Assembly: GCF_004339675.1 (NCBI RefSeq)
Contig: NZ_SLVM01000003.1
Span: 124,001-188,000 of the forward strand
Length of the DNA: 64,000 bases
Reading direction: 5' to 3'
Source of the DNA: Rhodovulum steppense
GTDB taxonomy: Bacteria > Pseudomonadota > Alphaproteobacteria > Rhodobacterales > Rhodobacteraceae
Under the pieces are notes generated by a model. The model searched no databases. It worked only from the letters and a program-made list of their open reading frames with translations, and had not been told where the DNA came from. Shown piece by piece: positions 36,466 through 48,153 of the stretch (position 1 is its first letter; each line of letters opens with the position of its first letter). The translations under genes were made by a program, and so were the position numbers.

Positions 36466-37209
36466 TCAGAACCGCCAGGTGACGCCGAAAAGCGGGCCGC
36501 TCATCGTGGCGTCGATGCGGGTTCCGCCGTCGCGGTAATCGACGCCGAGCGCGCGGTAGCCCGCCGACAGGAAGACCCGGTCGCTTAGCTGACGGTTCAG
36601 CGTCGCGACCACCTGGCCCGTGCGTTCGGACCCGACCCCGAAGCCACCGAAATCGCCGTAAAGAATGGCCGACCATTGCGGCGCGAGCGCGATATTGGCC
36701 CGCAGGGCGAGGACCGGATCCGTGAAACTGCGCGTCGGCGAGGCGGAGAGCCCTGCCAACGGCACATCGACCGATCCCTTGATCCGCCAGTGCCGCACCC
36801 CTGCGAGCAGGTCGACCGAGAGGCCGGGTTCGTCCACCGCCCTGACCCCGGCGGCCAGCGTCAGCGATGTCTGCTCGAGCTTGCCCCTGGCCGGGGCGCC
36901 GGGGGGAACCAGACCGCTGCGCGAACTGGCGGAATGGCTCAGATCGCCCAGCAGGACGAACCGGTCCCGCCGCGCGTAGCCCGATAGGAAAAACGCCGCG
37001 TCGAGATCCTCGAGAACTTCGGAAAAGGACGAGTCGAACGATATCGTGGGGGCGCCGCCAAATGGCGTGATGTCGCCGCCCACGCCCGCGGCCCAGGCAT
37101 AGGGCGTGACCTGCCAGACCCAGTCGGGGCTTTCCTGTGCCGCGGCGGGGCCACAGGCCGCCGCCAGGAGTGCAGCCCACACGCCCTGCCCCACCCGTTT
37201 CGTGGTCAT
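36466..37209 (-). CDS. Beta-barrel outer-membrane protein
   Basis: A 247-residue exported protein with signal peptide (ending AAAQES) and alternating amphipathic strands typical of an eight- to ten-stranded barrel (WVWQVTPYAWAAGVGGDITP, FVLLGDLSHSASS, WSAILYGDFGGFGVGSE, VFLSAGYRALGVDYRDGG), ending in GVTWRF, whose C-terminal Phe is the barrel-assembly signal. The start overlaps the amidohydrolase stop (ATGA), so it is co-translated with that enzyme. Substrate unknown. Confidence 0.78.
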   Translation of the reverse strand: MTTKRVGQGVWAALLAAACGPAAAQESPDWVWQVTPYAWAAGVGGDITPFGGAPTISFDSSFSEVLEDLDAAFFLSGYARRDRFVLLGDLSHSASSRSGLVPPGAPARGKLEQTSLTLAAGVRAVDEPGLSVDLLAGVRHWRIKGSVDVPLAGLSASPTRSFTDPVLALRANIALAPQWSAILYGDFGGFGVGSERTGQVVATLNRQLSDRVFLSAGYRALGVDYRDGGTRIDATMSGPLFGVTWRF

Positions 37210-38669
37210 GCCAGCATGTCCTTGACGATCCGCCCGCCCTTGAGGATCAGGCGCAGCGAGGTTTCGGAGGTTTCGAGCCAGGCGAGATCGGTTTCCGGAT
37301 CGCCCTCGATCACCAGCAGATCGGCCAGCGCATCCTTGCGGATCACGCCCAGGGCCCCGGCATAGGGCGCGCGGTCGCCCGAAAGGGCCAGCAGCGCGCC
37401 CGCCGCGCCGGTGGCCTTGTGCAGGGCTTCGAGCGGCGACATGAAGCGGGCGAACTTGGCCAGGTTGCGGCCCTGCAACGCGCCGCCCTGCGCGTTGAAC
37501 AGGATGTCGGTGCCGAAGGCGACATTCACGCCATGCTTGCGCGCCAGATCGAAGGCGCGCACCGTGCCCTCGGCGACCTGCTGCTGCTTGGCGATCTGGC
37601 GGGGGTCGGTATAGGCGTTGGAATCCTCGTCGGCGAGGAAGGGCTGGATCGACCACCAGACGCCATTGTCGGCCATCATCCGAACGGTGTCCTCGTCCGC
37701 CAACTGGCCGTGCTCGATGGATCTCACGCCGGCGGCGATGGCCCGCCGGATGCCGGTCGAGGTGTAGACATGGGCGCAGACATAGGTGCCCCAATCCTCG
37801 GCCGCCTCGACCGCGGCGCGCATCTCGCGTTCGGTGTATTGCGTGGCGTCCAGCGGATCGTAGAGCGAGGCGACCCCGCCGCCCGCCATGATCTTGAGCT
37901 GGCTCGCCCCCTTCATCAGCTGTTCGCGCGCGGCGCGCAGGACCATGTCGGCGCCGTCGGCGATCTGCGCGACGCCCTGCCGTTCGATGTAATTCGCGGG
38001 CGTGTCGGGAAAGCGCGGCAACTCGTTCAGCAGGCGGAAATCGCCATGCCCGGCGGTCTGCGAGATCATCGCGCCCGAGGGGAAGATGCGCGGCCCGGCC
38101 ACCACGCCGCGGTCGATCGCCAGTTTCAGCCCGAAGGCGGGACCGCCGACATCGCGCACGGTGGTAAAGCCGCGCATCAGCGTGGCACCCGCCTCGCGCC
38201 CGGCCATCAGGTGAACGAAGCCGATATCCTGCGTCAGCGCCACGATCTGGCTGACCGCGACCAGCGTCGCATGCCAATGCGCGTCGATCAGGCCGGGGAT
38301 GACCGTGCGCCCGCCGCAATCGATCCGCTCTGCCTCCTGCGGGCCCTGGCCGATCGGCGGCAGGGCGGCGATCCGCTCGCCCGCGATCAGGATGTCGACG
38401 CCGTCGCGCAGCGCCAGCGTCTCGCCGTCGAAGAGGCGCAGATTGGTCAGCAGCAGCGGGCGGCCGGGCGTCTGGGCGCGGACCTCGCGCGGGGCAAGGC
38501 CGAAGCCTGCGAACATGCCCAGCACGGCCGCCGTGCCGCCGATCATCCGGCGCCGGTTGATGTCCGCCTCGATCCGGGCAAAGGCGGCCTGCGTCCCGGG
38601 CGCGCCGCAATGGCAGATATCGACGGGCGCGCGATCTGCCGGATCGACAGAGTGACAGACCTGGCACAT
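37206..38669 (-). CDS. Tat-exported amidohydrolase with Cys/His-rich N-terminus
   Basis: A 487-residue metal-dependent hydrolase. The amidohydrolase core shows the metal motif LIDAHWHATLVA, later histidines in TAGHGDF, CAHVYTSTG and IEHGQLADE, and the catalytic Asp in VAFGTDILF. A twin-arginine-like signal (NRRRMIGGTAAVLGMFAG) starts only at about residue 38; before it lies a CxxCH motif (CQVCH, residues 2-6) and a CHC (19-21). The class hydrolyses imidopeptides or lactam-like amides. Its gene is followed, with ATGA overlap, by an outer-membrane protein. Substrate not predictable. Confidence 0.83.
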   Translation of the reverse strand: MCQVCHSVDPADRAPVDICHCGAPGTQAAFARIEADINRRRMIGGTAAVLGMFAGFGLAPREVRAQTPGRPLLLTNLRLFDGETLALRDGVDILIAGERIAALPPIGQGPQEAERIDCGGRTVIPGLIDAHWHATLVAVSQIVALTQDIGFVHLMAGREAGATLMRGFTTVRDVGGPAFGLKLAIDRGVVAGPRIFPSGAMISQTAGHGDFRLLNELPRFPDTPANYIERQGVAQIADGADMVLRAAREQLMKGASQLKIMAGGGVASLYDPLDATQYTEREMRAAVEAAEDWGTYVCAHVYTSTGIRRAIAAGVRSIEHGQLADEDTVRMMADNGVWWSIQPFLADEDSNAYTDPRQIAKQQQVAEGTVRAFDLARKHGVNVAFGTDILFNAQGGALQGRNLAKFARFMSPLEALHKATGAAGALLALSGDRAPYAGALGVIRKDALADLLVIEGDPETDLAWLETSETSLRLILKGGRIVKDMLA

Positions 38670-38835
38670 GTTCGACCCCCGGCGACCTTTCCAAGCTTGA
38701 GTCTATGCGTCCCGGCCCGCGAGTCAACGCATGGAAAGCCCTGCACCGCAGGGCACAGGGCCGGTCAACGGGGCGCAAGGACCGTTCCCGGACTGGACAT
38801 ACTGCCCCATCATTCATCAAGGCGCGCAAGAATCG

Positions 38836-38876
38836 GGCAGAGTCGCTGACCTGGGGGCTCCGGCCGATTGTCCGGC
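38836..38876 (+). promoter_or_regulatory. ANTAR-type dual hairpin in the amiC leader
   Basis: Second hairpin GCCG-ATTGTC-CGGC (38863-38876) has a six-base loop with A at position 1 and G at position 4, the signature bound by ANTAR proteins. The first candidate GGC-AGAGTC-GCT (38836-38847) has the same A1/G4 loop on a shorter stem with one G-U pair. Fifteen bases separate them. AmiR, the encoded ANTAR protein, is the likely ligand. The rest of the 331-base gap before amiC shows no gene. Confidence 0.6.
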
Positions 38877-38933
38877 TTGCCCGCATGCGGATCATATGGT
38901 GAAGTCTGGGAAAGGTTTATGGTCGGCAATCGG

Positions 38934-38969
38934 GCCCCGGCCCCCTGCGTGGGGGACTGGGGCTTTTTT
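38934..38969 (+). terminator. Intrinsic terminator in the amiC leader
   Basis: GCCCC-GG-CCCCC-TGCGT-GGGGG-ACT-GGGGC followed by six T (38964-38969). It lies 31 bases before the amiC start, so it would stop transcription of the whole operon unless overridden. The upstream segment 38853-38865 (GGGGGC-TCC-GGCC) can pair with the 5' arm (38933-38945) and would prevent the terminator. Fits antitermination by AmiR. Confidence 0.8.
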
Positions 38970-39000: not shown

Positions 39001-40131
39001 ATGGCAACGGCAAGGATCGGATTGCTCTTCTCGACGACCGGCCCCTATTCGGCGCTCGGCCGGAGTGCGCTCGACGGCGCGTTGATGGCGGTCGCCGAGG
39101 TCAACGCGCGCAATGGCCTGACGCTTGTGCCGGTCTGCGCGGATCCGCGGGGCGTTCCGGCGGATTACGAGAGGCTGGCGGCAGAGCTGCTGGGCGAAGG
39201 CGCGTTGCGGCATATCGTGGGCGGCATCACGTCATGGTCGCGCAAGGACATGATCCCGGTGATGGAGCGGCATGGCGCGCTTCTGTGGTATCCCTGCCCC
39301 TATGAGGGGTTCGAGTGCAACGATCATGTCGTCTATCTCGGCGCCTGCCCGAACCAGCATCTGGTGCCGCTGATCGACCATGTGCTGCGCAAGGGGCATC
39401 GGCGGGCCTTTCTCGTCGGGTCGAACTATGTCTGGGGCTGGGAGACCCTGCGCGTCGCGCGGGAATGGGTCTCGGCCGGGCAAGGCGGCGAGGTCACGGG
39501 CGAACGCTACCTGCCGCTTGGCGATACCGCTTGCGGGCATCTGATCGAGGAGATCGCGGCGCAGCAACCCGACCTGATCGTCAACAGCCTGATCGGGCCG
39601 TCGAGCCACGCCTTCATGCAGGCGCTGTCGCGGCTGGATCTGCCGGGGGGGCGACCGCTGGTGGTCAGCGCCAACCAGACCGAGGCCGATCTGGACGCCC
39701 TCGGCCCTGCGGCGGACGGGATGCTGTCAATGGGGGCGTGGTTCGAAACGCTGGACGACCTGACCACGGTGGCATTCCGCAACCGCATCGCCGCGCATTA
39801 CGGCGCGGAGTATCGTGCATCCTGCAACTTCGCCACGGCCTATACCGCGGTGCACCTGCTGGCCCGCGGGCTGGAGCGCGCAGGACGCGACGATCCGCGC
39901 GCGGTGTTCGCGGCGGTGGCGGGCAGCCCCGAGGACACGGTGCTGGGGCCGGTGACGATCGACCCGGTGACGCGGCATACCAGCCTGATCCCGCGCCTTG
40001 CCATGGCCGAGGCGGGCCGATTCCGGATCGTGGACGACCCGATGATCGCCGTTACGCCGGACCCCTATCTTGCCCGTGTCAGCGGCCCCGTGCCGCCCCA
40101 CGCGACGCCAAGGCTGAGGATCGTGTCATGA
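39001..40131 (+). CDS. amiC: Amide-sensing regulator AmiC (periplasmic-binding-protein fold)
   Basis: A 376-residue protein of the AmiC/FmdD branch of type I binding proteins. It lacks a signal peptide (MATARIGLLFSTTGPYSALG), as expected for cytosolic AmiC, which in Pseudomonas holds AmiR inactive until an amide binds. Recognised segments are WYPCPYEGFECNDHVVYLGA and NQHLVPLIDHVLRKGHRRAF. GGAAAGGAA precedes the ATG. Followed by amiR with ATGA overlap, the same order as in the Pseudomonas amidase operon. A transporter-binding role is less likely, since a separate exported binding protein lies downstream. Confidence 0.88.
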   Translation: MATARIGLLFSTTGPYSALGRSALDGALMAVAEVNARNGLTLVPVCADPRGVPADYERLAAELLGEGALRHIVGGITSWSRKDMIPVMERHGALLWYPCPYEGFECNDHVVYLGACPNQHLVPLIDHVLRKGHRRAFLVGSNYVWGWETLRVAREWVSAGQGGEVTGERYLPLGDTACGHLIEEIAAQQPDLIVNSLIGPSSHAFMQALSRLDLPGGRPLVVSANQTEADLDALGPAADGMLSMGAWFETLDDLTTVAFRNRIAAHYGAEYRASCNFATAYTAVHLLARGLERAGRDDPRAVFAAVAGSPEDTVLGPVTIDPVTRHTSLIPRLAMAEAGRFRIVDDPMIAVTPDPYLARVSGPVPPHATPRLRIVS

Positions 40132-40718
40132 CCCCGCGGCTGGAACTGAATTTCGCAGGCCGCAGTGCCGTCGTGCTGCACCCGGCCGAAACCGTCCGGA
40201 CCGAACTGGCCGCGCGCCTGGCCGCGCTTGGGGTGAGTGTCGCGGCCGACTGGCCCGCAAGCGGCGCCGTGGACCGGGCCGATTTCCTGTTCGTCGATGT
40301 GGACATGGGCCATGACGACCAGATCCCGTGGGAGCCGGGAACCGCGCCGATCCCGCTGATCGGGCTGGTGCGCTCCGAAAGCCCGGGGCGGCTTTCCTGG
40401 GCGCTGGGGCAGAATTGCGATGCCTTCCTGTCGCAGGCGGCGCTGGGGCTGGTCTACTCGACGCTGGTGATCGCGGCCGCCAAGTCGGCCGAGCGTCTGC
40501 GCGTGCGGCGCCGCGAGGAGGAAGCCGCGCGACGGGCGGGGATGCGCGACGTGCTGGTGCGGGCGGTTCTGGCGATCATGCAGGCCGAGGACGTGGAAGA
40601 GCTGGCCGCGCTCCGGCAGTTGCGTGCCTTCGCGATGGTCGAACGCATCGCGCTGGAAGATGCCGCGGCGCTTTACCTGAACGACCCGCGCCCCCGCCGC
40701 GCAGGGCAACCCCGATGA
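40128..40718 (+). CDS. amiR: ANTAR-domain transcription antiterminator AmiR
   Basis: A 196-residue protein: a degenerate receiver-like N-terminal domain (about 1-120, with FLFVDVDMGHDDQ), a linker helix (RLRVRRREEEAARRAGMRD) and a C-terminal ANTAR three-helix domain (VLAIMQAEDVEELAALRQLR, AFAMVERIALEDAAALYL). ANTAR proteins bind paired hairpins with A1/G4 loops and stop terminator formation. Such hairpins and a terminator lie upstream of amiC. Overlaps amiC and the permease gene by ATGA, so regulator and transporter are co-translated. Confidence 0.86.
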   Translation: MTPRLELNFAGRSAVVLHPAETVRTELAARLAALGVSVAADWPASGAVDRADFLFVDVDMGHDDQIPWEPGTAPIPLIGLVRSESPGRLSWALGQNCDAFLSQAALGLVYSTLVIAAAKSAERLRVRRREEEAARRAGMRDVLVRAVLAIMQAEDVEELAALRQLRAFAMVERIALEDAAALYLNDPRPRRAGQPR

Positions 40719-41602
40719 CCGACGCCACCGCCGCAACGCCGCCGCGGGGGCAGGGTTCGGTTCTGGTCGCGCTGCTGCGGCGCCCCCGGTCCGCCTTCGG
40801 ACTGATCGTGATCCTGACGATGGTCGGCGCGGCGGTCTTCGCGCCCTGGCTGATGCCCTATGACCCGAACGACCAGATGTTCGACGGCCTCAGCCTGGAG
40901 GGCGCGCCGCTGCCGCCCTCGTCGGAATTCTGGCTGGGCACCGACCTTCTGGGCCGCGACCTGTTCTCGCGGCTGATCCTCGGCGCGCAGACCTCGCTCA
41001 TCATCGGGGTGCTGGCCAATGGCATCGCGGTGCTGCTGGGCGCGACGGTGGGCATCACGGCGGGGTATTTCGGCGGCTGGATCGGCGGCATCCTGATGCG
41101 GTTTACCGACCTGATGATGGCCTTTCCCGCGCTGTTGCTGGCCATCGTGCTGGCCGCGATCTTCAAGCCCTCGCTGCTGATCGTGGCGATGGTGATCGCG
41201 ATGGTGAACTGGGTCCAGATGGCCCGCGTGATCTATACCGAGACCCGCAGCCTCGCGCAGCGCGAGTTCATCGAGGTGCAGCGCGCGATGGGCTCGTCCA
41301 CCTTCCGCATCCTCGGCCGCCACATCCTGCCGCATCTGGTCTATTCGATCATCGTCTTCGGCACGCTGGGGATCTCGACCACCGTGCTGCTGGAGGCGAC
41401 GCTGAGCTACCTCGGCGTCGGCGTCCAGCCGCCCACGCCCTCATGGGGCAACATCATCTACGAGAACCAGACCTATTTCGCCAACGCGCCCTGGCTGGTG
41501 TTCTTTCCCGGCCTTGCCATCGTGCTGCTGGCGCTGGCGTTCAACCTGTTGGGCGACGCGCTGCGCGACACGCTCGACCCGCGGCTGAAGGGGCGGCACT
41601 GA
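40715..41602 (+). CDS. Dipeptide-type ABC transporter permease (DppC family)
   Basis: A 295-residue permease. The N-terminal tail is followed by the DppC helix FGLIVILTMVGAAVFAPWLM, the periplasmic pattern PPSSEFWLGTDLLGRDLFSR and a coupling loop TRSLAQREFIEVQRAMGSST. The family handles peptides, nickel and other small compounds; here the amide context suggests short amides, urea-like compounds or amidated peptides. Overlaps amiR (ATGA) and the partner permease (TGATG). Confidence 0.92.
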   Translation: MTDATAATPPRGQGSVLVALLRRPRSAFGLIVILTMVGAAVFAPWLMPYDPNDQMFDGLSLEGAPLPPSSEFWLGTDLLGRDLFSRLILGAQTSLIIGVLANGIAVLLGATVGITAGYFGGWIGGILMRFTDLMMAFPALLLAIVLAAIFKPSLLIVAMVIAMVNWVQMARVIYTETRSLAQREFIEVQRAMGSSTFRILGRHILPHLVYSIIVFGTLGISTTVLLEATLSYLGVGVQPPTPSWGNIIYENQTYFANAPWLVFFPGLAIVLLALAFNLLGDALRDTLDPRLKGRH

Positions 41603-42522
41603 TGTGGGCCTATGTCGTCCGTCGGCTGGGCGAGTCGCTGCTGATCCTGCTGGGGATCAGCGTGGTGACATTTGCCCTGCTCTACCTCGTGCCCGCCGAT
41701 CCCGCGCGCCAGATTGCGGGCCGGTCCGCCACCGCCGAGACGGTGGCCAATATCCGCGCCCAGCTTGGCCTCGATCAGCCCTTCCACATCCAGTATGCGC
41801 GCTACCTGGGCAACCTGCTTCAGGGCGATCTGGGCCGGTCCTACCTGCAACGGACCGAGGTTTCGGAACTGATCGCGGCGCGGATGCCCGCCACGCTGTT
41901 GCTGATGGCAGCGGCGATCACGGTCGAACTGATCCTGGGGCTGACCATCGGCGTCATTGCCGCGCTCCGGCGCAATTCGGCGCTGGACCAGTCGCTGATG
42001 GTGTTTTCCTTCGTCACCATCTCGGCGCCGCAATTCGTGGTCGGCATCCTGCTGCTCTATGTCTTCGCGGTGCAACTGAACTGGTTTCCCATCGGCGGCT
42101 ACGGCACCTTTGCCCATCTGGTGCTGCCCGCGATCACCATCGGGCTTCTGGGCACCGGCTGGTATTCGCGCATGATGCGCAGTTCCATGATCGACGTTCT
42201 GGCGCAGGATTTCGTGCGCACCGCGCGGGCCAAGGGGCTGGGCCGGATGCGCATCATCCTGCGCCATGTCGCCCCCAACGCGATCCTGCCCATCATCGCC
42301 ATGATCGGCATCGACATCGGGCTGTTCATGTCCGGCATCGTGGTGGTCGAAAGCGTGTTCGGCTGGCCCGGTATCGGCCAGCTGGCCTGGCAGGCGATCC
42401 AGCGCGTGGACATTCCCATCATCATGGGGGTCACGCTGATTTCGGCCTGTTTCATCGTGCTGGGCAACCTCTTGGCGGACCTGATCGCCCCGCTGGTGGA
42501 CCCGCGGATCAAGCTCAAATAA
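41602..42522 (+). CDS. Dipeptide-type ABC transporter permease (DppB family)
   Basis: A 306-residue permease with six helices. Typical DppB features: N-terminal YVVRRLGESLLILLGISVVT, the segment VPADPARQIAG, and the coupling loop VLAQDFVRTARAKGLGRMRI. The C-terminal motif LIAPLVDPRIK matches the family. The unusual order, DppC before DppB, is noted. A 20-base gap with AACAGGAGAGGAAG leads to the binding-protein gene. Confidence 0.92.
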   Translation: MWAYVVRRLGESLLILLGISVVTFALLYLVPADPARQIAGRSATAETVANIRAQLGLDQPFHIQYARYLGNLLQGDLGRSYLQRTEVSELIAARMPATLLLMAAAITVELILGLTIGVIAALRRNSALDQSLMVFSFVTISAPQFVVGILLLYVFAVQLNWFPIGGYGTFAHLVLPAITIGLLGTGWYSRMMRSSMIDVLAQDFVRTARAKGLGRMRIILRHVAPNAILPIIAMIGIDIGLFMSGIVVVESVFGWPGIGQLAWQAIQRVDIPIIMGVTLISACFIVLGNLLADLIAPLVDPRIKLK

Positions 42523-42542: not shown

Positions 42543-44168
42543 ATGAAAAAGACGCTTGCCACAAGCCTCCTTGCGCTGGGAACGGCCTTCGGCCCGGTTC
42601 AGGCGCAGGATTTCCTGGATGCCAAGCAGGGCGGCGCGATGATCGTCACCTACAAGGACGACGTCTCCACCCTTGATCCGGCCATCGGCTATGACTGGCA
42701 GAACTGGTCGATGATAAAGTCGCTGTTCGACGGGCTGATGGATTACGAGCCCGGCACCACCGAACTGAAAAAGGACCTGGCCGAGGATTACACCATCTCG
42801 GATGACGGGATGACCTATACCTTCACGCTGCGCCAGGGCGTCAAGTTCCACAATGGCCGCGAGATGACGGCCGAGGACGTGAAATATTCGCTCGACCGGG
42901 TGACCAATCCCGCGACGCAAAGCCCCGGCGCCGGGTTCTTCGGCTCGATCGCGGGTTATGACGCGATGGCCGCGGGCGAGGCCGACAGCCTGTCGGGCGT
43001 GACCGTGATCGACCCCTATACCGTGGAAATCAGGCTGTCGCGGCCCGATGCCACCTTCCTGCATGTGATGGCGATCAACTTCTCGTCCATCGTGCCGAAA
43101 GAGGTGGTCGAGGAGTTCGGCGAGGATTTCGGCAAGAACCCGGTCGGCACCGGCGCCTTCTATCTTGAAAACTGGACGCTGGGCCAGTCGCTGACCTTCG
43201 CCCGCAATACCGAGTACTGGAACGAGGGGCTGCCCAAGCTCGACAAGATCACCTTCGAGATCGGGCTGGAACCCATCGTCGCCCTTCTGCGGCTGCAACA
43301 GGGGCAGGCCGATATCCCCGGCGACGGCATCCCGCCCGCCAAGTTCCTGGAGGTGACGCAGGATCCGGCCTTCAAGGATCTGGTGATCGAGGGCGGGCAG
43401 TTGCATACCGGCTACATCACCATGAACGTCAACATGGCGCCCTTCGACAACGTCAAGGTGCGCCAGGCGGTGAACATGGCGATCAACAAGGACCGCGCCG
43501 TGCGCATCATCAACGGCCGCGCGGTGCCCGCCAACCAGCCGCTGCCGCCCACGATGCCGGGCTATGCGCCCGATTACGAGGGCTATCCCTACGACCCCGA
43601 GGCCGCCAGGGCGCTGCTGGCCGAGGCGGGCTTCCCCGACGGCTTCTCGACCGAGATGTACGTCTTCAACACCGACCCGAACCCGCGCATCGCGCAAAGC
43701 TTCCAGCAGGATCTGGCGGCCATCGGCATCCGTGCGGAAATCCGCAGCCTCGCACAGGCCAACGTGATCGCCGCGGGCGGCGAGCCGGACCAGGCGCCGA
43801 TGATCTGGTCGGGCGGCATGGCCTGGATCGCCGACTTCCCCGACCCGTCCAACTTCTACGGGCCGATCCTGGGCTGCGACGGCGCGGTGCAGGGCGGCTG
43901 GAACTGGTCGTGGTACTGCAACGAGGACCTGGACGCCGCGGCCAATGCCGCCGACGCGATGACCGACCCCGCCGAGGCCGAGGCGCGCGAGGCCGCGTGG
44001 CGCGACATCTACCTCAAGATCATGGAGGATGCGCCCTGGGTGCCGGTGTTCAACGAACAGCGCTTCACCATGCGCTCGGCCCGTCTGGGCGGCCCCGACG
44101 CGATCTTCGTCGATCCGGTCCATGTGCCGGTGAACTACGACTTCGTGTATTCGACCGATGTGCAATAA
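42543..44168 (+). CDS. Dipeptide-type ABC transporter substrate-binding protein
   Basis: A 541-residue SBP_bac_5 protein with signal peptide (residues 1-21, ending PVQAQ). Typical features are VSTLDPAIGYDWQNWSMIKS, LRQGVKFHNGREMTAEDVKY, NPVGTGAFYLENW and a C-terminal domain with FNEQRFTMRSAR. It is exported to the periplasm and feeds the two permeases. Its last 11 bases overlap the formamidase gene, so the binding protein and the enzyme are coupled, which argues for an amide as ligand. Confidence 0.9.
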   Translation: MKKTLATSLLALGTAFGPVQAQDFLDAKQGGAMIVTYKDDVSTLDPAIGYDWQNWSMIKSLFDGLMDYEPGTTELKKDLAEDYTISDDGMTYTFTLRQGVKFHNGREMTAEDVKYSLDRVTNPATQSPGAGFFGSIAGYDAMAAGEADSLSGVTVIDPYTVEIRLSRPDATFLHVMAINFSSIVPKEVVEEFGEDFGKNPVGTGAFYLENWTLGQSLTFARNTEYWNEGLPKLDKITFEIGLEPIVALLRLQQGQADIPGDGIPPAKFLEVTQDPAFKDLVIEGGQLHTGYITMNVNMAPFDNVKVRQAVNMAINKDRAVRIINGRAVPANQPLPPTMPGYAPDYEGYPYDPEAARALLAEAGFPDGFSTEMYVFNTDPNPRIAQSFQQDLAAIGIRAEIRSLAQANVIAAGGEPDQAPMIWSGGMAWIADFPDPSNFYGPILGCDGAVQGGWNWSWYCNEDLDAAANAADAMTDPAEAEAREAAWRDIYLKIMEDAPWVPVFNEQRFTMRSARLGGPDAIFVDPVHVPVNYDFVYSTDVQ

Positions 44169-45098
44169 CTGCAATCACACGATCCACGGTCGTCATCATC
44201 ATTTCGGGTGGGATCGGTCGATCCCCCCCGTCGCCACCGTGGCGCCCGGGGAATCGGTGCATTTCGAATGCGTCGATGCCTCGGGCGGGCAACTCGCGCA
44301 GGACAGCAGCGCCGCCGATCTGGCCAGCCTGTCCTTCGAGCGCGTCAACCCGGTCACCGGCCCCGTCCATGTGGACGGGGCCAGACCGGGCGACGTGCTG
44401 AAGATCACCATCGACGGCTTCACGCCGTCGGGCTGGGGCTGGACGGCGAACATCCCGGGCTTCGGCCTTCTGGCCGACCAGTTCCCCGAAGCGGCGCTGA
44501 ACATCTGGTCCTATGATGCCGACACGCTGGCCCCGGCGCTTTACTGCGACGTGGCGCGCGTGCCGCTCAAACCCTTTGCCGGCACCATCGGCCTTGCCCC
44601 AGCCGAGGCCGGGCATCATTCCGTGGTGCCGCCAAGGCGGATGGGCGGCAACCTGGACATCCGCGACCTTGCCGCGGGCACGACCCTTTACCTCCCCGTC
44701 GAGGTCGAGGGCGCGCTGTTTTCCATCGGCGACACCCATGCCGCCCAGGGCGATGGCGAGGTCTGCGGCACCGCGATCGAAAGCCCGATGAACGTCTCGC
44801 TCACGCTCGACCTCATCAAGGACCAGCCGCTGAAATTCCCGCGCTTCACCACGCCGGGGCCGGTGACGCGGCATCTGGATGCCCGGGGCTACGAGGTGAC
44901 GACCGGCATCGGCCCCGACCTGATGACCGGGGCGCGCGACGCGCTGGCGGCCATGGTCGACCTGATCTGCGCGCAGCACAAGCTGTCGCCGGTTCAGGCC
45001 TACATGCTGTGCTCGGTCTGCGGCGATCTGCGCATCTCCGAGATCGTGGACATGCCGAACTGGGTCGTCTCGTTCTACCTGCCGCGGATCGTCTTCGA

Positions 45099-45102
<4 letters not shown>
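44158..45102 (+). CDS. fmdA: Acetamidase/formamidase family amidase
   Basis: A 314-residue enzyme hydrolysing formamide or short amides to ammonia and the acid. The N-terminus MCNNCNHTIHGRHHHFGWDR is typical of FmdA-type proteins. Other landmarks are GARPGDVLKITIDGFTPSGW, PPRRMGGNLDIRDLAAGTTL, SIGDTHAAQGDGEVCGTAIE and the Cys-containing AYMLCSVCGDLRISEIVDMP. Starts within the end of the binding-protein gene (11-base overlap) and its stop overlaps the ATPase start (ATGA). Position under AmiC/AmiR supports amide use as nitrogen source. Confidence 0.87.
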
Positions 45103-46892
<1,790 letters not shown>

Positions 46893-46916: not shown

Positions 46917-47606
46917 ATGAGCTGGAAGACCGCCTTTCGCTCCTTCTACTACGAAACCGCCGACGAGCCCGAGGATATCGTCCTGCCCCCCGCCGAAACG
47001 GCGCTTCTGGTGATCGACATCCAGAACACCTATCTCGAACCCAAGGACACGCCCGAGGAAAACACCCGCTGGCAGCCCTTCTTCGACCGGATGCGCGACG
47101 TGGTGATCCCGAACACCCGGCGCTTGCAGGACTGGGCGCGCGGGAACGGGATCGAGGTGATCCATGCCCGCATCGCCTGCCTGAAACAGGACGGGCGCGA
47201 CCGCTCGCTGTCCCAGAAGAAACCCGGCTTCAACTACCTGCTTCTGCCCAAGGACCGCGCCGACAGCCAGATCGTGGACGAGGTCGGCCCGCGGGCGGAC
47301 GAGATCGTGGTCACCAAGACCACCGACAGCGCGCTTACGGGGACCAACCTGCGGATGATCCTGCACAACATGGGCATCCGGCATGTGATCGTGGCGGGCA
47401 TCTTCACCGATCAATGCGTCAGTTCCAGCGTGCGCAGCCTGGCCGACGAAAGCTTCAACGTCGTGGTGGTCGAGGATTGCTGTGCCGCCGCAACCGACGA
47501 ATTGCACCGCCATGAACTCGCCGTCATCAACATGATCTACTGCCATGTCGTCAGCAGCGCCGAGGTCAGAGGCTTCCTTTTGCAGCAAGAGCCGGGCCGA
47601 TCCTGA
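46917..47606 (+). CDS. Isochorismatase-family cysteine hydrolase
   Basis: A 229-residue hydrolase with the catalytic triad pattern of the family: Asp in LLVIDIQNTYLEP, Lys in DEIVVTKTTDSALTGTNL and Cys in VAGIFTDQCVSSSVRSLAD. Family members cleave amides such as biuret, ureidoacrylate, nicotinamide and N-carbamoyl compounds. As the last gene of the AmiC/AmiR-controlled operon, 24 bases after the ATPase, an amide-like substrate is likely; biuret-type hydrolysis is one option. Start ATG 46917 has CAGGAG upstream. Confidence 0.87.
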   Translation: MSWKTAFRSFYYETADEPEDIVLPPAETALLVIDIQNTYLEPKDTPEENTRWQPFFDRMRDVVIPNTRRLQDWARGNGIEVIHARIACLKQDGRDRSLSQKKPGFNYLLLPKDRADSQIVDEVGPRADEIVVTKTTDSALTGTNLRMILHNMGIRHVIVAGIFTDQCVSSSVRSLADESFNVVVVEDCCAAATDELHRHELAVINMIYCHVVSSAEVRGFLLQQEPGRS

Positions 47607-47946: not shown

Positions 47947-48153
47947 ATGGCCAATGGCACCGTGAAATGGTTCAATTCCACTAAAGGCTTCGGCTTCATC
48001 GAGCCCGCGACGGGCGGCAAGGACGTTTTCGTCCACATCTCTGCGGTCGAGCGCGCTGGTCTTACCGGCCTCGACGACAATCAGAAGGTGACCTTCGACG
48101 TTGAGTCTGGCCGCGACGGCCGCGAAAGCGCGAGCAACCTCGCCCTCGTCTGA
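47947..48153 (+). CDS. cspA: Cold-shock protein CspA family
   Basis: A 68-residue single cold-shock domain. RNA-binding motifs RNP1 (KGFGFIEP) and RNP2 (VFVHISAVE) are intact, after the N-terminal NGTVKWFNSTKGF. It binds single-stranded RNA/DNA and acts as RNA chaperone. The ATG at 47947 follows AACAGGAGACCACGGAT. A perfect 28-base palindrome lies 62 bases after the stop. The frame is open far upstream but only this part is a cold-shock domain. Confidence 0.96.
   Translation: MANGTVKWFNSTKGFGFIEPATGGKDVFVHISAVERAGLTGLDDNQKVTFDVESGRDGRESASNLALV

What the first reader, a model, noticed from the sequence alone, without database searches (positions are those of the whole stretch)
38836..38969. 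AmiR/ANTAR antitermination leader controlling a whole amide operon
Upstream of amiC-amiR lies an intrinsic terminator with six T and, before it, two small hairpins whose six-base loops have A1 and G4 (AGAGTC and ATTGTC), the signature of ANTAR RNA targets. The segment 38853-38865 can also pair with the terminator's 5' arm, and it overlaps the second ANTAR hairpin. A single leader would thus gate an eight-gene operon. Pseudomonas amiE is the known model; here the target would be a dipeptide-type ABC transporter with formamidase and a cysteine hydrolase. The first hairpin is weak (3 bp with a G-U pair), and it is not clear from sequence how AmiR binding to the second hairpin would favour read-through, because that hairpin hides part of the terminator-pairing strand.
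Basis: partly seen in the sequence, partly recalled or inferred. Interest (0 to 1): 0.75.

Follow-up and report, generated by a model that had tools for sequence, protein, structure and literature searches.

The report
One-hairpin AmiR switch on amide operon
A short RNA leader in front of an amide-uptake operon of a Rhodovulum bacterium carries a terminator that the regulator AmiR probably disarms by gripping one small six-base-loop hairpin, so it looks like a stripped-down form of a known RNA switch and not the two-hairpin site that was first proposed.

Summary
Theirs (38836-38847, 38862-38877) are absent as a pair from the 10 other clade leaders examined and lie upstream of the predicted -10 box, so are probably not transcribed. 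It occurs, followed by a T-run, in 49 of 54 distinct amiC-amiR loci (6.3 expected from shuffles). Its loop has A1 in 49 of 49, G5 in 42, the textbook G4 in 3. Other Rhodobacteraceae carry a 5' hairpin before it (21 of 23), in one case drawable as an A1/G4 hexaloop; the window's clade lacks it (1 of 11, chance level). The window thus looks like a natural single-hexaloop ANTAR attenuator with a shifted loop signature: a new variant of a known kind. No binding, start site or termination has been measured.

The parts
38876..38905 (+). predicted promoter: CTTGC block, -35 TTGCCC 38877-38882, spacer 17, -10 TGAAGT 38900-38905; start of transcription expected near 38911-38914
   Evidence: CTTGC invariant in 11 of 11 Rhodovulum/Tropicimonas leaders, 47-60 nt before P2. 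Best-scoring promoter in 150 nt puts the -10 end 15-34 nt before P2 in 8 of 11 (shuffles 1.7), 15 of 23 (3.7) and 8 of 15 (2.2) leaders of three groups. Not mapped experimentally
38925..38936 (+). P2: antiterminator hexaloop hairpin GGC[AATCGG]GCC, proposed AmiR target
   Evidence: 49 of 54 distinct amiC-amiR loci have GGC-N6-GCC then a T-run, 6.3 expected from shuffles; loop A1 49/49, G5 42/49, G4 3/49
38934..38969 (+). intrinsic terminator; its first three bases are the 3' strand of P2; T6 at 38964-38969
   Evidence: 38934-38965: -27.2 kcal/mol; alignment A1 and its consensus fold
39001..40131 (+). amiC: amide sensor and AmiR partner; no signal peptide seen by eye
   Evidence: PF13433 Peripla_BP_5, E 2.5e-91
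40128..40718 (+). amiR: pseudo-receiver plus ANTAR antiterminator
   Evidence: PF21332 AmiR_N above cut-off; ANTAR PF03861 at E 0.0078, below cut-off; family profile to 1qo0_D AmiR, 1s8n, 6wsh EutV, 4akk NasR
40715..41602 (+). DppC-type ABC permease
41602..42522 (+). DppB-type ABC permease
42543..44168 (+). SBP_bac_5 substrate-binding protein
44158..45102 (+). FmdA/AmdA acetamidase-formamidase family
   Evidence: PF03069, E 1.9e-65
45099..46892 (+). double-domain ABC ATPase (best NCBIfam match GsiA, below its cut-off)
46917..47606 (+). isochorismatase-fold hydrolase
   Evidence: PF00857
   Evidence: 0 of 10 other clade leaders have the pair; upstream of the predicted -10 box

Best explanation
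Transcription starts near 38912 and gives a leader of about 57 nt. By default the segment 38934-38963 folds into a strong terminator and stops RNA polymerase at the T6 tract before amiC. When an amide binds AmiC, AmiR is released, binds the nascent hexaloop hairpin P2 (GGC-AAUCGG-GCC, 38925-38936) and holds it. Because P2's 3' strand (38934-38936) is the base of the terminator's 5' arm, which pairs next to the U-tract (38961-38963), the terminator can form only shortened and detached from the U-tract, and polymerase reads through into amiC-amiR, the dipeptide-type ABC transporter, the formamidase-like and the isochorismatase-fold genes. amiC and amiR sit behind their own attenuator, so induction should feed itself. 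Shown here: the sequence elements, their conservation, that P2 and the full terminator compete for the same bases, and the operon order in relatives as far as their DNA was held. Inferred: the start site, termination, AmiR binding to P2, the ligand.
For: (1) GGC-N6-GCC followed by a T-run in 49 of 54 distinct amiC+amiR loci, 6.3 expected from dinucleotide shuffles, 1.2 with A1; 49 of 50 with AmiC >=40% identical; in the exception, L019, whose amiC match starts late, GGCAATTGGGCC is visible upstream. (2) Loop base A1 49/49 and G5 42/49, though the selection asked for neither. (3) The GCC that closes P2 pairs into the terminator in the consensus fold of 37 leaders: its three bases pair in 35, 35 and 37 of 37. 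(4) P2 alone -2.7 against terminator -27.2 kcal/mol, so P2 needs a stabilising protein; with P2's 3' strand taken away the rest folds at -17.3 with its stem detached from the U-tract. (5) A model of these leaders gives one strong hit in the own genome, upstream of amiC (50 bits, next 22.5); in 295 family genomes 18 of the 20 hits with E<0.01 sit directly upstream of amiC; at least 13 of the 20 were not in the seed, and 11 of those 13 are upstream of amiC. (6) The same model finds, weakly (21.5 bits), a leader before an amidase gene in L102, on the strand of an amiR. (7) AmiR is a recognisable ANTAR protein. (8) The upstream gene (37206-38669, minus strand) is divergent, so this terminator does not end an upstream + strand operon.
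Against: No binding, start-site or termination data. The loop signature is A1/G5, not the published A1/G4 (PMC3369931). EutV antitermination needed two hexaloops with constrained spacing (PMC3369931, PMC8934654), and only one is found in the window. The window AmiR's ANTAR match is under the Pfam cut-off (16.4 against 27.3 bits). Four amiC-amiR loci with divergent AmiC (32-38%) show no such element. Of 10 examined model hits with E 0.01-0.1, 7 are not near amiC. The 54 loci are related, so counts are not independent events.
Confidence: 0.78

Rival explanations
1. The reader's dual A1/G4 hairpins (38836-38847 and 38862-38877) are the AmiR target and the transcript starts upstream of 38836.
For: They match the published loop rule, and a dual arrangement occurs only four times in 64 kb; the block 38816-38925 differs at only seven places between the two closest species.
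Against: 0 of 10 other clade leaders have the pair; in the closest relative G4 of loop 1 and the stem of hairpin 2 are changed. They do not overlap the terminator, and the second hairpin runs into the invariant CTTGC block that fits a -35 box.
Confidence: 0.05
2. Dual-hexaloop AmiR control is kept in the window clade, with a weak first hairpin that simple stem searches miss, or one supplied in trans.
For: 21 of 23 other Rhodobacteraceae leaders have a 5' hairpin ending within 4 nt of P2. Weak A1/G4 hexaloops (3 bp or wobble-rich) can be drawn within 27 nt of P2 in 3 of 11 clade leaders, L002, L007 and L008, but not in the window. In the amidase leader L182 a hexaloop A1/G4 hairpin folds upstream of P2. 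Three of the 11 clade leaders keep a longer gap between promoter and P2.
Against: A stem of >=4 bp is found in 1 of 11 clade leaders, shuffles give 0.6; 3 of 11 weak A1/G4 hexaloops is within chance (mean 1.05, maximum 5); in 8 of 11 the best -10 box ends 17-21 nt before P2, leaving about 12 nt of transcript before P2.
Confidence: 0.13
3. Ribosome-coupled attenuation by a small leader peptide starting just before P2 (ATG at 38919).
For: An ATG lies shortly before P2 in the window and in several relatives.
Against: The closest relative has CTG instead, and the distance from ATG to P2 differs between species (6, 9, 11, 5, 5 and 8 nt in L001, L004, L005, L007, L008, L035, read), so the frame is not conserved; other Rhodobacteraceae leaders have a hairpin there instead.
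Confidence: 0.03
4. The P2-like sequence is only the foot of a constitutive terminator, with no regulation.
For: The terminator alone is strong.
Against: The loop A1 and G5 are outside the terminator stem yet conserved, the element sits between a predicted promoter and the regulators, and strong model hits are nearly confined to amiC-amiR operons.
Confidence: 0.04

Closest known systems
Pseudomonas aeruginosa amiE leader with AmiC/AmiR (PMC3369936 main text part 1 and PMC3369931 passages read)
   Same: AmiC-AmiR pair, intrinsic terminator in a transcribed leader, hexaloop P2 overlapping the terminator's 5' arm
   Different: Here the leader stands directly before amiC-amiR followed by a dipeptide-type transporter and FmdA, not before amiE; the dual A1/G4 motif reported for amiE is not found: one hexaloop, loop AATCGG
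Enterococcus faecalis EutV/eut leaders (PMC3369931, PMC8934654; abstract and passages)
   Same: P2 is embedded in the terminator; protein-stabilised antiterminator
   Different: EutV needs two hexaloops with A1/G4 and constrained spacing; EutV is activated by phosphorylation, AmiR is held by AmiC
Klebsiella NasR/nasF leader (PMC3369936)
   Same: ANTAR protein, hexaloop hairpins and terminator
   Different: Nitrate-sensing domain in the same protein; dual motif with A1/G4
NasT leaders (Paracoccus PMC5424462, Bradyrhizobium PMC6759348; search listing and start of abstracts only)
   Same: ANTAR regulators of alphaproteobacteria; antitermination named for Bradyrhizobium NasT
   Different: Nitrate assimilation or denitrification genes, sensor partner NasS; RNA loops not compared here

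Membership tests
ANTAR protein (AmiR type) | AmiR pseudo-receiver N-domain and C-terminal ANTAR three-helix domain with conserved alanines | tested here: met
   PF21332 over cut-off; all 24 aligned members match PF03861 at E<=5, the window protein at E 0.0078 but under the curated cut-off; A146, A161, A169, A180 invariant and M170, R173 nearly so; profile to 1qo0_D E 2.2e-37
ANTAR RNA target (dual hexaloop, Ramesh 2012) | two hexaloop hairpins P1 and P2 | tested here: not met
   window: only P2. A >=4 bp stem before P2 in 1 of 11 clade leaders, shuffles 0.6; weak A1/G4 hexaloops in 3 of 11, not the window, shuffles 1.05
ANTAR RNA target (dual hexaloop, Ramesh 2012) | A at loop position 1 and G at position 4 | tested here: not met
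   P2: A1 49/49, G4 3/49, G5 42/49; window loop AATCGG
ANTAR RNA target (dual hexaloop, Ramesh 2012) | P2 overlaps the intrinsic terminator's 5' strand | tested here: met
   GCC 38934-38936 shared; in 37 aligned leaders the three bases pair into the terminator in 35, 35 and 37
ANTAR RNA target (dual hexaloop, Ramesh 2012) | ANTAR protein binds the RNA and induces read-through | not testable with these tools
   needs gel shift and reporter
Rfam families | match to a curated RNA model | tested here: not met
   0 gathering-level matches in the window

The most novel reading that the evidence does not exclude
The Rhodovulum/Tropicimonas clade has natural single-hexaloop ANTAR attenuators: the first hairpin still present in other Rhodobacteraceae was lost, and AmiR antiterminates from one P2 hairpin whose recognition base has moved from loop position 4 to 5. 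This would show that the dual-hexaloop rule is not required in vivo and that the ANTAR loop code can shift.
Probability: 0.47. Interest if true: 0.62.

Novelty: new variant of a known kind. Interest (0 to 1): 0.5.

Why it matters
Walshe et al. 2022 (PMC8934654; [quoted passage not shown] A clade in which the first hairpin seems to be gone while P2 is kept is a ready natural test, with leaders of about 57 nt, one strong target in the genome, and relatives that still carry a first hairpin as a control. The G5 loops also give a comparative handle on how ANTAR domains read RNA.

Tried and rejected
Rfam at gathering level: nothing. A Pfam ANTAR search of the own genome found nothing, but it rang in no control genome either, so it is uninformative. 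A terminator-plus-hexaloop scan over 16 fetched AmiR regions gave many hits that look coding and three that I judged convincing, L114, L115 and L117. A wider terminator listing was used only for reading single leaders. Canonical amidase leaders: of 34 amiE-like loci printed with about 170 nt upstream (19 of the loci, 15 of the loci), only two, L151 (the same gene as in L102) and L182, showed a leader with such a terminator by eye, so the loop rule in canonical systems rests on two cases here. Leader-peptide attenuation considered and rejected. A sigma-54 reading of the CTTGC block was considered by eye; no -24 element seen. Covariation of the first hairpin was judged from the listed stems and shuffles, not by a pair-count tool. 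Paper searches (listings only apart from the three papers named) listed no paper that I could recognise as being about amiC-amiR leaders of Rhodobacteraceae; one listed paper is on NasT-type genes of Paracoccus (PMC5424462, same family) and one (PMC13209695) holds the words AmiC, AmiR and formamidase; neither was opened. Supplements of Ramesh 2012, which hold their genome-wide hit list, could not be read, so these leaders may be in that list. Rows dropped before counts: 8 duplicate loci (from then on); only the 49 leaders with GGC-N6-GCC were counted, so invariance of those six bases is by selection. Alignment A1 used 37 of the 49.

Full report
What is there. The window lies in what is probably a Rhodovulum genome (nearest named relative found: R. 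tesquicola, amiC 94% identical). Genes downstream of the leader: amiC 39001-40131, amiR 40128-40718, two Dpp-type permeases, an SBP_bac_5 protein, FmdA/AmdA, a double ABC ATPase and an isochorismatase-fold hydrolase, ending at 47606, with overlaps or short gaps. The gene upstream (37206-38669, amidohydrolase family) runs the other way. All 35 loci L031-L065 keep the order amiC-amiR-permease-permease-binding protein; the later genes lie outside the DNA held for them and were not tested.

Both hairpins and the terminator exist at the stated places. A1/G4 hexaloop hairpins are common in this GC-rich DNA (one per 292 nt on the + strand; four dual arrangements in 64 kb). None of 10 other leaders of the same clade has the pair; L006 and L007 have one such hairpin in that stretch. 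L002, the closest, has lost G4 of loop 1 and a stem pair of hairpin 2. Aligned leaders of 11 Rhodovulum/Tropicimonas genomes share an invariant CTTGC block, at 38876-38880 in the window, and the P2 block; CTTGC starts 47-60 nt before P2 in all 11. The best-scoring promoter puts -35 at 38877-38882 and -10 at 38900-38905, ending 19 nt before P2 (which scanned only 60 nt). A scan of 150 nt keeps that site for the window and places the -10 end 15-34 nt before P2 in 8 of 11, 15 of 23 and 8 of 15 leaders of the three groups, against 1.7, 3.7 and 2.2 in shuffles; in L004, L008 and L039 a better-scoring site lies further up. This remains a prediction.

The conserved element. Searching 250 nt upstream of amiC in 54 distinct loci that have both amiC and amiR, 49 hold GGC-N6-GCC followed by a T-run; shuffles give 6.3. 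With AmiC at 40% identity or more it is 49 of 50, and in the fiftieth (L019, whose amiC match starts at residue 49) GGCAATTGGGCC is visible further up. The four others (L024, L026, L027, L028) have AmiC of 32-38% identity and lack it. Over the 49, loop position 1 is A in 49, position 5 is G in 42, position 4 is G in 3. The loci are related, so these are not 49 independent events. In the window it is GGC[AATCGG]GCC at 38925-38936, and GCC 38934-38936 is also the base of the terminator (GCCCCGGCCCCC-TGCGT-GGGGG-A-CTGGGGC, 38934-38963, T6 to 38969).

Mechanism. P2 alone folds at -2.7 kcal/mol, the terminator at -27.2. With P2's 3' strand taken away the rest of the terminator folds at -17.3 with its stem detached from the U-tract. 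This is the published ANTAR logic: stabilising P2 shortens the terminator stem and separates it from the U-tract (PMC3369936, main text part 1). Because amiC and amiR lie behind the leader, induction should feed itself.

Specificity. A covariance model of 37 leaders (R1) has one strong hit in the own genome (50 bits; next 22.5). In 295 family genomes, 31 have a hit at E<=0.1 (stricter filters). Of the 20 hits with E<0.01, 18 lie directly upstream of amiC; of the 10 examined hits with E 0.01-0.1, 3 do; one more was not fetched. Six of the 20 are seed members by handle and a seventh (G582) seems to be one because its AmiC identity and span equal those of L052; of the other 13, 11 are upstream of amiC. 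The exceptions under 0.01 are L136 (looks coding) and L139 (before a cytosine/purine-type permease, PF02133, next to a divergently placed AmiC homologue).

First hairpin. In 23 leaders with AmiC at 50-57% identity, 21 have a stem of 4-7 bp ending within 4 nt of P2 (shuffles: mean 4.3, maximum 9); in 15 more distant ones, 11 (mean 1.5, maximum 5); in the 11 of the window clade, 1 (L004; mean 0.6, maximum 3). Stems differ in sequence while staying paired (for example GGTCG/CGACC, GGCCG/CGGCC, GGCGG/CCGCC, TGGCT/AGCCA). An A1/G4 hexaloop of >=3 bp within 27 nt of P2 is found in 1 of 23 (L049), 0 of 15 and 3 of 11 (L002, L007, L008; shuffles 1.05, maximum 5) leaders of the three groups; the three in the window clade are weak, lie at different places, and the window itself has none. 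In the 60-nt scan the -10 box ends 24-32 nt before P2 in the 23, but 17-21 nt in 8 of the 11 of the window clade; the other three (L006, L035, L039) have 25-30 nt and still no such hairpin. Loss of the first hairpin in this clade is therefore likely but not proven.

The protein. AmiR matches AmiR_N above cut-off and ANTAR only weakly on its own (E 0.0078), but all 24 aligned relatives match ANTAR at E<=5, and the family profile finds solved AmiR (1qo0_D, E 2.2e-37), 1s8n, EutV (6wsh) and NasR (4akk). Conserved alanines and an R-x2-A-M-x2-R stretch are kept.

Comparison with canonical systems. The model also picks up, weakly (21.5 bits), a leader before an aliphatic-amidase-like gene on the strand of amiR in L102; naming the enzyme AmiE rests on recall. 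A second amidase leader (L182/L211), with amiC and amiR homologues downstream, has P2 AGAGC[AAATGA]GCTCT, again A1 and G5, and upstream GCATC[AACGTC]GATGC with A1/G4. L102 has P2 loop AACAAG, with neither G4 nor G5; its upstream hairpin gives an A1/G4 hexaloop only if drawn with a mismatch, and the fold predicted another loop. Two cases do not settle the rule, and the published statement for P. aeruginosa is A1/G4 in both loops (PMC3369931 passages).

Verdict. It is filed as working like an ANTAR attenuator with an ANTAR protein beside it; as a dual-hexaloop ANTAR target it fails two tested defining features. I read passages and section 10 part 1 of PMC3369931, the outline, abstract and passages of PMC8934654, and part 1 of the text of PMC3369936.

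Noticed in passing
L139:1501-1562 (+): A P2-plus-terminator leader (loop AGTTAG) with a TTGACA before it stands upstream of a cytosine/purine-type permease, beside a divergently oriented AmiC homologue (35% identical): AmiR-like control may extend to nucleobase transport.
   Followed up: partly
L112:2441-2618 (-): Two leader-like units with terminators in tandem upstream of a binding-protein-like gene (27 and 15 bits with model R1).
   Followed up: no
leaders of L009-L065, about 26 nt upstream of P2: A hairpin with a stem that changes while staying paired and a variable 4-9 nt loop precedes P2 in 21 of 23 leaders outside the window clade with AmiC at 50-57% identity; its function is not explained by the A1/G4 rule.
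   Followed up: partly
window 38816-38925: The region around and upstream of the predicted promoter differs at only seven places from the closest Rhodovulum species, while DNA further up differs more; it may hold a DNA-level regulatory site.
   Followed up: no
L105, L110, L111 leaders: AmiR proteins with a QAT instead of an AM motif seem to go with leaders whose P2 loops are T1/G4 and, in L105 and L111, a first hairpin with A1/G4 (read by eye), so loop code and ANTAR sequence might co-vary.
   Followed up: no
window 47947-48153: A cold-shock-like protein (start MANGTVKWFNSTKGFGFIEP) follows the operon on the same strand; named by recall.
   Followed up: no
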